This document shows positions 6,373 through 58,562 of a stretch of DNA of 64,000 bases, piece after piece (positions within the stretch are counted from its first letter, which is position 1; each line of letters opens with the position of its first letter). Source of the stretch: Candidatus Roslinia caecavium. GTDB lineage: Bacteria > Bacillota > Clostridia > Monoglobales > Monoglobaceae. Under the pieces are notes generated by a model that worked only from the letters and a program-made list of their open reading frames with translations, ran no database searches and had not been told where the DNA came from. The position numbers and the translations under genes are program-made. The stretch is from contig CAJFTO010000005.1 of the NCBI GenBank assembly GCA_904419955.1, forward strand, positions 1 through 64,000, read 5' to 3'.

Positions 6373-6410
6373 GGTATCAACTTAAAGTTAATGCGAAACG
6401 AGGGGAAATT

Positions 6411-6596
6411 AACGTGAAAGGCACTTTCACGTTAGCCTCCGACAGGATTAAAGCGCTCGCGCGAGATTTTTTCTTCGCGTATAGCGCATTCAAAAGCGCG
6501 TATAGGCGTAATAATCTCTTATCATTCCTTGCCCTGCGGATAAGAGAGATTTCATTATTATCTACGCCGAAGCAGGGCGGCGGAATGGAGATTATT
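6411..6596 (+). repeat. Structured RBS-carrying repeat, copy A
   Basis: A 186-bp element that also occurs twice at 58073-58431 on the other strand. It opens with a perfect hairpin (AACGTGAAAG / CTTTCACGTT, 3-base loop, 6411-6433), then a conserved CCTCCGACAGGAT, a GC-rich central arm with variable loop, a TCTCTTATC / GATAAGAGA stem (6515-6549 area), and ends GCAGGGCGGCGGAATGGAG-ATTATT directly before the ATG. The loop of the third stem contains CATTCC and GCCCTG, complementary to GGAATG and CAGGGC beside the Shine-Dalgarno sequence. The frame is open through this copy, but the ribosome binding site points to the downstream ATG. Confidence 0.85.
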
Positions 6597-7502
6597 ATGT
6601 ACAACCCGCAGCTTGACGTATTCATAAAGACCGCCGACGAAGGAAGTTTCACAAAGGCGGCGGATGAACTATACATATCGCCGACAGCGGTGATGAAACA
6701 GATAAATTCGCTCGAAAGCCGGATAGGCGTAAAACTCATAGAACGGACGAACCGCGGGATCAGTCTGACAGAGGCGGGGAAAGCGTTTTATAAGGAAGCG
6801 AAGCTGTTTATAGAGTATTCGAACAACGCTATAAGCAGAATAAAACGCGCCGCCGAGGACGACAGGTTCGTTATCCGCGTTGGGACGTCTATGCTCAATC
6901 CGTGCAAGCCGCTTATGGAACTGCTGAAATATTCGGACGACGTATATGATAAGTTCAGGATAAACATAATTCCTTTTGAGGACGAGCATACGAATATCCT
7001 GACGGTAATCGAGAGTATAGGGTCAAAATTTGATTTTATTTTCGCCGCCTGCAATTCGCCGCAGTGGCTGAGCCGCTGTAACTTTTTCAAGATAGGAGAC
7101 TACGACGTCTGCTGCGCGGTACCCGGTTTTCATCGTTTGGCGTCTAAGCGCAGACTTTCGGTAAGCGATCTGAGAGGAGAAGCGCTTATTATGATGGAGA
7201 GGGGCGGCAGTTATATCCTCGACGATCTTCGAGACAGATTATCAGCTCAGGAGCTCATGATAAAGATCGAGGACGCCTCGTTTTACGATATCGACGTGTT
7301 TAACCGCTGCGAACGAACCGGCGGCGTATTGCTTACCCTAAGCGGCTGGAGCGATATACATCCGTCTTTGATTACGATACCTGTCGACTGGGATTATAAG
7401 ATGCCTTACGGTTTGCTGTATCCGCTCAATCCTAACGAGCATATCTTGAGTTTTTTGGAGATTATAAAGGCCGCCGCCGATAAGGCCGAATATATAAAAT
7501 AA
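6597..7502 (+). CDS. LysR-family transcriptional regulator
   Basis: A 301-residue LysR-type regulator. The winged helix-turn-helix occupies residues 1-60 (GSFTKAADELYISPTAVMKQ, then LESRIGVKLIERTNRG). The rest is the periplasmic-binding-protein-like effector domain. The start is ATG at 6597, matching the usual family length and preceded by GGAATGGAG. A 78-codon in-frame extension upstream is the repeat element, not protein. It is divergent from the flavodoxin-reductase operon, its likely target. Its translation start region is supplied entirely by repeat copy A, so that element probably influences its expression. The inducer is unknown. Confidence 0.92.
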   Translation: MYNPQLDVFIKTADEGSFTKAADELYISPTAVMKQINSLESRIGVKLIERTNRGISLTEAGKAFYKEAKLFIEYSNNAISRIKRAAEDDRFVIRVGTSMLNPCKPLMELLKYSDDVYDKFRINIIPFEDEHTNILTVIESIGSKFDFIFAACNSPQWLSRCNFFKIGDYDVCCAVPGFHRLASKRRLSVSDLRGEALIMMERGGSYILDDLRDRLSAQELMIKIEDASFYDIDVFNRCERTGGVLLTLSGWSDIHPSLITIPVDWDYKMPYGLLYPLNPNEHILSFLEIIKAAADKAEYIK

Positions 7503-56517: not shown

Positions 56518-56544
56518 GGTTTTTACTAATAATATATATGACGC

Positions 56545-56624
56545 GCAAAGCTCTTGTTACGCAAAGTTTTTGTTACGCAAAGTTTTTGTTACGCAAAATT
56601 TTTGCTATGCAAAGTTTTTGCCGC
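56545..56624 (+). repeat. Five tandem 16-bp repeats
   Basis: Consensus GCAAAGTTTTTGTTAC in five head-to-tail copies (56545, 56561, 56577, 56593, 56609); copies 2 and 3 are identical, the outer ones diverged. They lie between the YdcF gene and the DUF378 gene, with no other gene in the 347-base gap. Confidence 0.9.
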
Positions 56625-57187: not shown

Positions 57188-58072
57188 TCAGTCCGCTTTA
57201 AACTCTGCGACGCTTTTTCCGTTTTCGGTAAATATCAGCTTATAAGCTCTGAGCGCCTGATACATATCGCCCTCGCCGCGCTTTGCGCCGTACTTAACGT
57301 CGCCTTTCAAAGGGTGTCCTATGTAGGCGAAAGAGGCGCGGATCTGATGCGTTCTTCCGGTATGCAGTTCGACCTCTAAATCGGTACTGTCGCTTTTTAG
57401 GTCGCAGCGCAGAACGCGGTAGCCGAGCCGGGATGAGCGCGCGCCCGGTTTGGGGGTTTGGGAAAACTCCATAAGATTATTTCCTATCTTATATATATAT
57501 CCGTTTATTTCTCCGCCTTCTTGGATCCGTCCCTCCACGGTAAGACGGTAGAACTTGCGTATCTCGCGGTTCTTGATCTTCTCGTTTATCCGCTTTAGCG
57601 CTCCGGCGTTCTTAGCCATTATTAAAAGGCCGGAGGTGTTACGGTCTATTCTGTGGCAAAGAGAAGGGATAAAGGCCCCCGGCGAGGAAATATCTATCTC
57701 GGACTTATCATACAGATAGCGTCTGGCGCGTCCCTCCGCCGAATCCTTATCCTCCGACTGTGAAAGCAGCCCCGACGGCTTATCTATTATAAGCATGTCG
57801 TCGTCTTCGAATACGACCTTTATATCCGGGCTTAATTTGAGCCATGGGATATCCGTATTTTCGCTTTCGAAAAATTCGTCGTTGATATATGCTTGCACCT
57901 TGTCGGAGGTTTTTAAAACGTATTTGAGGTCGGCGCGCTTTCCGTTTACCTTGACTCGCTTTTTCCTAAAGGCCTTGTAAATCATCCCGGGCGCGGCTTT
58001 CGACGCCTGTTTGAATATGAATTTGTCGAGCCTTTGCCCGGCCTCCTTTTCGGTTATTATAAATTCTTTCAT
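57188..58072 (-). CDS. RluA-family rRNA pseudouridine synthase
   Basis: A 294-residue pseudouridine synthase. An S4 RNA-binding domain (about 11-70) precedes the catalytic domain with HRIDRNTSGLL, where D143 is the nucleophile. ELHTGRTHQIRASFAYIGHP is the RluA-family C-terminal block. It resembles RluC/RluD (23S rRNA), but the target uridine is not readable. The start at 58072 is chosen because the ATG directly follows the GGAATGGAG end of repeat copy B1, as in the lysR gene; 12 further in-frame codons upstream belong to the repeat. Two tandem copies of the repeat precede it. Confidence 0.92.
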   Translation of the reverse strand: MKEFIITEKEAGQRLDKFIFKQASKAAPGMIYKAFRKKRVKVNGKRADLKYVLKTSDKVQAYINDEFFESENTDIPWLKLSPDIKVVFEDDDMLIIDKPSGLLSQSEDKDSAEGRARRYLYDKSEIDISSPGAFIPSLCHRIDRNTSGLLIMAKNAGALKRINEKIKNREIRKFYRLTVEGRIQEGGEINGYIYKIGNNLMEFSQTPKPGARSSRLGYRVLRCDLKSDSTDLEVELHTGRTHQIRASFAYIGHPLKGDVKYGAKRGEGDMYQALRAYKLIFTENGKSVAEFKAD

Positions 58073-58253
58073 AATAATCTCCATTCCGCCGCCCTGCGTC
58101 GGCGTCAATAGGAATGAATTTCTCTTATCTTCAGGGCAAGGAATGATAAGAGATTATTAAGCCCATGCGCGTTTCCGAGAGTTATACGCGAGGAAAATTT
58201 CGCGCGGGCAATCTAATCCTGCCGGAGGCTAACGTGAAAGGAACTTTCACGTT
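58073..58253 (-). repeat. Structured RBS-carrying repeat, copy B1
   Basis: Minus-strand copy immediately before the rluA ATG. It has the same opening hairpin (AACGTGAAAG / CTTTCACGTT, 58231-58253), the same TCTCTTATC / GATAAGAGA stem and the same GGAATGGAG-ATTATT end as copy A. It is about 94% identical by eye to B2, the differences clustering in the apical loop near 58170-58182. The long central arm GCCCGCGCG / CGCGC-AT-GGGC is clearer here than in copy A. Confidence 0.9.
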
Positions 58254-58431
58254 AATCTCCATTCCGCCGCCCTGCGTCGGCGTCAATAGGAACGAATTTC
58301 TCTTATCTTCAGGGCAAGGAATGATAAGAGATTATTAAGCCCATGCGCGTCTTAGAGCATTATACGCGAGGAAAATTTCGCGCGGGCAATATGATCCTGT
58401 CGGAGGCTAACGTGAAAGGAACTTTCACGTT
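58254..58431 (-). repeat. Structured RBS-carrying repeat, copy B2
   Basis: A tandem duplicate of B1 with a 178-bp period. Its GGAATGGAGATT end is fused directly to the AACGTG opening of B1, so no start codon follows it. This junction defines the unit boundaries. Copy A is preceded by a similar GGGGAAATT. Confidence 0.9.
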
Positions 58432-58562
58432 ATTTTCCTAATTTTATCGGGTCCTCCATATATATACCGGCGCGGCGTCTCCCGCTCGATCTGGCGATAT
58501 GTTTCGGCCGCGCGCGTTTATCGTCTTTTGATATAAGTCTATATGCCGGCTTTGCATTCGGC

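What the first reader, a model, noticed from the sequence alone, without database searches (positions are those of the whole stretch)
58073..58431. The repeat has features of a translation-controlling RNA switch
In all copies the loop of the TCTCTTATC/GATAAGAGA stem carries CATTCC and GCCCTG. These are complementary to GGAATG and CAGGGC, which flank or overlap the Shine-Dalgarno sequence. CGCC..GGCG next to it gives a competing hairpin. The leading CCTCCG could also pair with the GGAG. Differences between B1 and B2 concentrate in one apical loop, and the copy A opening hairpin differs only in the loop, as expected for conserved RNA structure. The ligand, if any, is unknown.
Basis: partly seen in the sequence, partly recalled or inferred. 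Interest (0 to 1): 0.75.

Follow-up and report, generated by a model that had tools for sequence, protein, structure and literature searches.

The report
Mobile RNA-like element at start codons
A short, strongly folded DNA repeat has spread through gut-type Clostridia by landing exactly between a gene's ribosome-binding site and its start codon and supplying a new ribosome-binding site of its own, so it looks less like a ligand-sensing switch than like a mobile element that repairs the signal it breaks.

Summary
Two tandem copies (58073-58431, sense on the minus strand) and a third (6411-6596, plus) belong to a family of about 27 copies in this 2.8-Mb genome, found in 63 of 291 genomes of the class. 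An 84-sequence alignment supports the proposed pairings: the loop CATTCC/GCCCTG with GGAATG/CAGGGC covaries, and a further helix pairs with the spacer between Shine-Dalgarno (SD) and ATG. Nearly all copies end exactly at the start codon of unrelated genes (85 of 99 non-redundant copies; 10 more run into a tandem copy) and follow the gene's own SD (84 of 99). Sister species show the same genes without the element, SD-spacer-ATG intact, and old copies shrink to little more than the SD-bearing 3' end. I read it as a structured, probably non-autonomous mobile element that carries a replacement ribosome-binding site; SD gating is structurally plausible but not shown, and no ligand or regulon is apparent. 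Relatives sharing the core sit behind -10 promoter boxes (rebuilding a -10 at their 3' end) or behind terminators, suggesting a wider superfamily. No transposase partner was found; the mechanism is open.

The parts
58073..58253 (-). copy B1 of the element (sense AACGTGAAAG...GGAGATTATT), ending directly before the ATG of the pseudouridine synthase gene
   Evidence: junction rule from empty sites (exact left end ambiguous by 1-3 nt)
58254..58431 (-). copy B2, upstream tandem copy; its own SD-spacer is the insertion site of B1 (junction GGAGATT|AACGTG)
6411..6596 (+). copy A, ending directly before the ATG (6597) of a LysR-type gene
58433..58439 (-). native SD-like AGGAAAA upstream of B2, separated from its gene by both copies
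   Evidence: sequence; SD-like 4-mer in the 14 nt upstream of 84 of 99 copies vs 1896 of 14716 control windows
6400..6405 (+). native SD-like GAGGGG upstream of copy A
   Evidence: sequence
58231..58253 (-). P1, left-end hairpin AACGTGAAAG-ttc-CTTTCACGTT (B1)
   Evidence: 94.5% of cells paired, 7 of 11 pairs double-changed
58224..58229 (-). GCCTCC after P1, complementary to the native SD that precedes P1 (could mask the displaced SD)
   Evidence: generic, not copy-specific
58161..58209 (-). P2 core hairpin GCCCGCGCG...CGCGCATGGGC, shared with relatives at promoters and terminators
   Evidence: outer helices 96.7-97.1% paired, double changes in 7 of 9 pairs
58121..58153 (-). P3 stem TCTCTTATC/GATAAGAGA with loop holding CATTCC and GCCCTG
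   Evidence: 99.1% paired, no double changes
58140..58145 (-). CATTCC in the P3 loop, partner of GGAATG
58132..58137 (-). GCCCTG in the P3 loop, partner of CAGGGC
58150..58158 (-). AATAATCTC, partner of the SD-spacer GAGATTATT (P0)
58091..58096 (-). CAGGGC, 3' side of the pseudoknot/long helix
58073..58087 (-). GGAATGGAGATTATT: 3' end of the element with its own SD (GGAG, 58079-58082) 6 nt before the ATG (58070-58072)
   Evidence: 73 of 99 copies have the start codon exactly 6 nt after GGAG
57188..58072 (-). RluD-type pseudouridine synthase gene, translated from the element's SD
   Evidence: Pfam PF00849 E 1.5e-31
6597..7502 (+). LysR-family gene behind copy A
   Evidence: Pfam PF00126 E 3.1e-21

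Best explanation
It is a mobile (mobile in the recent past, probably non-autonomous) structured repeat of about 180 nt that enters target genes between their SD and start codon. Shown by the data: the element sits immediately 5' of ATG, leaves the native SD upstream, and provides a new GGAG 6 nt before the ATG; orthologous empty sites exist; copies nest in each other's SD-ATG gap; the fold is conserved by compensatory change. Inferred: the left hairpin P1 with its CCTCC masks the displaced native SD so that ribosomes do not start there, while the new SD at the 3' end takes over initiation, which makes insertion tolerable and later loss difficult (only the 3' SD end is then needed, so old copies shrink to it). 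Whether the P0/CATTCC/GCCCTG helix also tunes translation by opening and closing over the new SD is possible but unproven; the same inverted-repeat design at the right end of promoter-type relatives suggests that its first role may be in mobility (end recognition as folded DNA or RNA) rather than in regulation.
For: Copies: 30 matches in this genome, about 27 of them full or contig-cut copies. Position: 85 of 99 non-redundant full copies are followed by a start codon with an ORF of 50 or more aa or running off the contig, 9 by a tandem copy in the script's count plus L078 by eye; the other 4 are L017 (ATG mutated to AGG), L106 (contig end), L137 and L127 (ATG present, short frame); control GGAG sites in the same loci 36 of 1314. 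Native SD upstream 84 of 99 vs 12.9% of control windows. Empty sites in congeners for 8 occupied loci, e.g. occupied CATCAAGGAGTTCA|TAACGTG...GGAGATTATT|ATGAAAAG, empty CATCAAGGAGTTCATAATATGAAAAG in two species; a ninth site, L056/L162 vs L303. Within-genome copies are more alike than between genomes (0.85 own, 0.90 in three close species, 0.79 between). Unrelated downstream genes: pseudouridine synthase, PP-loop, enolase, Era-type GTPase, ATP synthase epsilon, LysR, SpoIIIAA, Dus and others. Internally deleted copies keep the 3' end. Covariation: 31 of 51 pairs double-changed, score 0.215 vs 0.080 shuffled.
Against: No transposase or other partner was identified: IS110 DEDD domain in 9 of 21 genomes (7 over the cut-off) and missing from copy-rich G016, G020, G024, G026, G058, G077, G109; Y1 transposase in 11 of 21, missing from G000, G005, G016, G077, G109. 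No terminal inverted repeats and no clear target-site duplication for the start-codon type. Polarity (insertion vs precise loss) is inferred, not dated. Some sites are old: the dapF copy is shared by at least three congeneric species, so some copies persist, which a regulatory role would also explain. Strong covariation across genera shows lasting selection on the fold, whatever its purpose.
Confidence: 0.72

Rival explanations
1. A genuine translation-controlling RNA switch (riboswitch, protein-binding leader or thermometer) that has been duplicated in front of many genes: the P0/PK helix hides the SD, the local P3 stem frees it, and a signal shifts the balance.
For: SD and spacer lie in a covarying helix; two near-isoenergetic folds; nearly always co-directional with and directly before a gene; some copies kept across species.
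Against: 20 downstream genes in this genome have no common function; site-by-site presence/absence between sister species; frequent loss of P1/P2/P3 with only the SD end kept; tandem insertions; relatives with the same P1-P2 core outside leaders; no match to any Rfam family.
Confidence: 0.15
2. A more specific version of the mobile reading: a non-autonomous IS200/IS605-like (single-strand, hairpin-ended) element in which the internal arm CGTTA.GCCTCC acts as a guide for the left cleavage site in the target (SD), and the internal AATAATCTC/CATTCC/GCCCTG segment as a guide for the right end.
For: No inverted termini, hairpins at both ends, internal segments complementary to both junctions, the left one reaching into native DNA; in promoter- and terminator-type relatives the P1 arm follows the native left flank over up to about 20 nt.
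Against: Y1 transposase domain in only 11 of 21 genomes and none found in this one; the start-codon type does not show copy-specific arm-flank matching; the guide logic is recalled from IS608, not tested here. Template-switch correction of imperfect palindromes could also explain the matching arms.
Confidence: 0.2
3. A bridge-RNA-like element of the IS110 kind, moved in trans.
For: Folded RNA-like interior with segments complementary to both junctions.
Confidence: 0.04
4. A leader-peptide (uORF) attenuator starting at GTGAAAG behind the native SD.
For: SD-spacer-GTG AAA at the left junction; in copy A the frame stays open into the LysR gene.
Against: The frame from GTGAAAG has no conserved length in 73 copies (12 codons in 32, 22 in 6, otherwise scattered); P1 changes keep base pairing.
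Confidence: 0.03

Closest known systems
BOX/RUP/SPRITE small interspersed repeats of pneumococcus (PMC3049150; abstract start and passages seen)
   Same: Mostly under 200 nt, multi-copy, strongly folded, BOX modular, insert into one another, thought parasitic, can sit in transcribed regions
   Different: BOX and RUP have terminal inverted repeats and target duplications; none of the passages seen describes insertion exactly between SD and start codon with a replacement SD
Mobile/repeat sequence candidates of a survey of 50 bacterial genomes, e.g. MRSC-65-2 (PMC11109978; passages seen)
   Same: Covarying structured motif, dozens of copies per genome, judged selfish
   Different: MRSC-65-2 is one long stem with a UYCCGG repeat; ours has three hairpins and a pseudoknot-like long-range helix and is tied to start codons
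IS200/IS605 ends and palindrome-associated elements (recalled)
   Same: Hairpin ends, no inverted termini, internal segments pairing with the cleavage/target sites
   Different: No consistent Y1 partner found; long rather than 4-nt pairings; target is an expression signal
SD-sequestering pseudoknot riboswitches such as the preQ1 classes (PMC11625349, only search listing and abstract start seen; mechanism recalled)
   Same: Pseudoknot-type pairing that can cover the SD
   Different: Not tied to a pathway; no ligand known; multi-copy with empty sites in sister species
c-di-GMP-controlled group I intron between SD and start codon in Clostridioides difficile (recalled, not looked up)
   Same: An inserted RNA element lying between SD and start codon
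   Different: That one splices to create the SD context; here the element carries its own SD, and no intron family reached its Rfam threshold in the window

Membership tests
Riboswitch / cis-regulatory leader | Covarying fold including the SD region | tested here: met
Riboswitch / cis-regulatory leader | Associated with a coherent set of genes | tested here: not met
   20 downstream proteins, 19 with a Pfam match, no shared function
Riboswitch / cis-regulatory leader | Ligand- or signal-dependent change of translation | not testable with these tools
   needs a bench assay
Any Rfam 15 family | cmscan score at or above gathering | tested here: not met
   window 0 matches; 58040-58480 only a sub-threshold match; 18 related loci: only a T-box next to one relative
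MITE / non-autonomous mobile repeat | Multi-copy with presence/absence at orthologous sites | tested here: met
MITE (classical) | Terminal inverted repeats and target-site duplication | tested here: not met
   none seen; left junction 3 nt short of the right one in 6 of 9 occupied/empty pairs (read by eye)
MITE / non-autonomous mobile repeat | A transposase acting on its ends | tested here: inconclusive
   IS110 and Y1 searched, neither consistent; other classes not searched
IS200/IS605-derived | Y1 transposase in hosts | tested here: inconclusive
   11 of 21 genomes; none found in the window's genome, 94% complete
IS200/IS605-derived | Internal guide pairing with target flank | tested here: inconclusive
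   generic SD/anti-SD pairing in the start-codon type; flank-specific pairing in promoter/terminator relatives
IS110-derived (bridge RNA) | DEDD transposase in hosts | tested here: not met
   9 of 21 genomes, absent from 7 copy-rich ones

The most novel reading that the evidence does not exclude
A previously undescribed superfamily of structured mobile elements that target gene-expression signals and rebuild them: one shared P1-P2 core with exchangeable 3' modules, one type entering between SD and start codon and ending in SD-spacer (this finding), a second SD type with another module, one entering behind the -10 box and ending in an extended -10, one entering behind terminators. Target choice would come from base pairing of the left hairpin arm with the signal, so that the element finds and restores the very signal it interrupts.
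Probability: 0.33. Interest if true: 0.92.

Novelty: new variant of a known kind. Interest (0 to 1): 0.77.

Why it matters
If right, ribosome-binding sites of dozens of ordinary genes in gut and rumen Clostridia are not ancestral but carried in by a mobile element, a natural experiment in swapping translation initiation regions. It offers a direct test of how a mobile element can hit essential genes without harm, gives a candidate new targeting mechanism (pairing with a functional signal), and warns that SD-sequestering folds conserved by covariation need not be riboswitches.

Tried and rejected
Leader peptide: frame not conserved. Rfam identity: none. CGCC..GGCG competing hairpin: no covariation. 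Copy-specific matching of the P1 arm to the native SD flank in the start-codon type: not above permutation (67 of 99 copies had a clean enough P1 to score). IS110 and IS200/IS605 partners: not consistent (the loci these calls fetched were not examined further). Phage and plasmid records: no match. Two viral contigs matched a 19-nt pattern, but the stretch around it shows nothing else of the element, so I take both as chance. An autonomous copy with a gene inside was looked for only as split matches in the own genome, none seen; the larger regions of G293, G005 and G012 fetched were not analysed. Literature: eight answered searches listed no paper that by its title or abstract start describes a repeat inserted between SD and start codon; only open-licence PMC papers are covered and I read passages of two papers, so this is weak evidence of absence. 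Empty-site upstream DNA for ung and rlmB was too diverged to place junctions.

Full report
What is there. The finding covers two head-to-tail copies of a 178-nt repeat (58066-58243 and 58244-58421, 93% identical). Read in the sense of the genes they serve they lie on the minus strand: B1 58073-58253, B2 58254-58431. A third copy, A, is at 6411-6596 on the plus strand. B1 ends directly before the ATG (58070-58072) of a pseudouridine synthase gene, A directly before the ATG (6597) of a LysR-type gene.

Family size. The window's genome (2.81 Mb, 71 contigs, 94% complete) gives 30 matches, about 27 of them full or contig-cut copies. By DNA similarity 24 of 60 genomes of the relatives search, the own one counted, have matches; with a covariance model built from 36 copies 63 of 291 genomes of the class, in 44 of 181 genera. 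Records with names that carry an exact 23-nt piece are Ruminococcus, Oscillospiraceae, Clostridia and Bacillota assemblies from metagenomes (54 stretches). No match in phage or plasmid records; two viral hits to a 19-nt pattern look like chance.

Structure. On a MAFFT alignment of 84 copies (one search gave references for 98 of the 99 copies and I dropped 14 of those before aligning: left members of tandems, truncated or shortened copies, one near-duplicate and one second-module copy) 93.7% of 4219 cells pair, 31 of 51 pairs have changes on both sides, covariation score 0.215 against 0.080 for shuffles and at most 0.067 for slid structures. Supported helices: P1 (left hairpin), P2 (core hairpin), the loop-to-downstream helix GCCCTGC/GCAGGGC, the AATAA/TTATT helix covering the spacer between SD and ATG, and ATTCC/GGAAT. 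The local stem TCTCTTATC/GATAAGAGA is nearly always pairable but shows no double change. The CGCC/GGCG hairpin has no support. The tool's caution applies: related sequences inflate shuffle tests, and the structure was drawn from one of the rows; but the counts of double-changed pairs and the slide control agree. A first count on 36 copies gave the same picture. For B1 the 3' half has two nearly equal folds, a long helix that covers the SD (-27.8 kcal/mol) and the local stem (-26.6).

Position. Of 99 non-redundant full copies, 85 are followed by a start codon with an ORF of at least 50 aa or running off the contig, in 73 exactly 6 nt after GGAG; 9 are followed by a tandem copy by the script's test and one more (L078) by eye; L017 has ATG changed to AGG, L106 ends with its contig, L137 and L127 have the ATG but a short frame. 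Other GGAG sites in the same loci behave so, at 6 nt, in 36 of 1314 cases. The models used to find copies include the ATG, but copies reaching only position 160 of 185 were accepted. In the 14 nt before the element an SD-like 4-mer is present in 84 of 99 copies, against 1896 of 14716 control windows. The 20 genes directly behind a copy in this genome (left members of tandems set aside) have nothing in common, and domain matches begin near the N-terminus in many, so the ATG is the ordinary start.

Empty sites. In a group of five congeneric genomes eight occupied loci have an orthologous locus without the element; there the SD-spacer-ATG is intact and in the occupied genome it is split. In two of the eight the empty site itself carries, or may carry, the remnant of an older copy (L183/L184) or a partly deleted one in a further species (L189). 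A ninth (L056 and L162 against L303) shows a full element sitting in the SD of an older remnant. Counting by eye, the distance from SD to the element's AACGTG is 3 nt shorter than the distance from SD to ATG in the empty site in 6 of 9 pairs; L171 and L173 differ and L168 is ambiguous. There is no long target duplication. Against a purely recent origin: the dapF site is occupied in at least three species, so some copies are old.

Decay. Of 20 further 3'-end sites fetched from four genomes, by eye five carry an essentially full element, one an internal duplication, ten have lost internal parts or all but the 3' end, and four show only the 19-nt motif. dapF in G016 lacks the P3 part. What is kept is the SD-bearing end, not the fold.

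Relatives with other modules. Weaker model hits share P1 and the P2 core but carry different 3' halves. Several (e.g. L048, L053, L094-L096, L098, L248, L250, L253) end in AAAGGCTATGGAAATTATTATG or similar at start codons, again with an internal complement. Others sit behind the -10 box of promoters: of 18 aligned rows from one family of genomes 14 have an extended -10 at the left junction and 16 at the right end (two loci appear twice and two rows look like the same insertion), often with the same variant on both sides, and an internal complement of the right one in nearly all. Others follow terminator-like T-runs (L257, L258, L264, L279) or a T-box leader (L099); in these the P1 arm mirrors the native flank over up to about 20 nt. 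In the start-codon type this mirroring is not copy-specific. The mirroring can come from targeting by base pairing, from selection, or from template-switch correction of imperfect palindromes (recalled mechanism); I cannot separate these. No empty sites were examined for these relatives.

Reading. The simplest account of position, empty sites, nesting, decay and mixed gene set is a mobile, structured, probably non-autonomous element that enters between SD and ATG and brings a replacement ribosome-binding site. P1 with CCTCC would silence the displaced SD; the new GGAG takes over. A regulatory effect of the SD-covering helix is possible and would be easy to test, but nothing points to a ligand or regulon. 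No partner enzyme was found: IS110 in 9 of 21 genomes, Y1 in 11 of 21, neither tracking copy number.

Known or new. Nothing in Rfam 15 matches. Literature searches over open-licence papers (passages of PMC11109978 and PMC3049150) found related kinds, small parasitic folded repeats and mobile/repeat candidates, but no element of this placement in what I saw. I file it as a new variant of a known kind, the small mobile repeat; the wider superfamily idea would be more than that if it holds.

Noticed in passing
window 56544-56620: Tandem array of about 4.8 copies of a 16-nt unit CGCAAAGTTTTTGTTA upstream of a small membrane-protein-like ORF.
   Followed up: no
L315, L318, L319, L336-L338, L343 and others: Relatives sharing the P1-P2 core sit directly behind the -10 box of promoter-like TTGAC...TATAAT sequences and end in an extended -10 themselves.
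   Followed up: partly
L257, L258, L264, L265, L275, L279, L283, L285, L099: Other relatives follow terminator-like T-runs or similar flanks; the left hairpin arm mirrors the native flank, up to about 20 nt.
   Followed up: partly
L281, L282 (genome G293): A different element with the same outer ends (TAACGTGAAA... and GGCGGAATGGAGATTAATATG) but an unrelated interior, two near-identical copies before different genes.
   Followed up: no
contigs C16, C39, C46, C56 of the window's genome: Several contigs end inside or next to element copies, so the true copy number is probably higher than counted.
   Followed up: no
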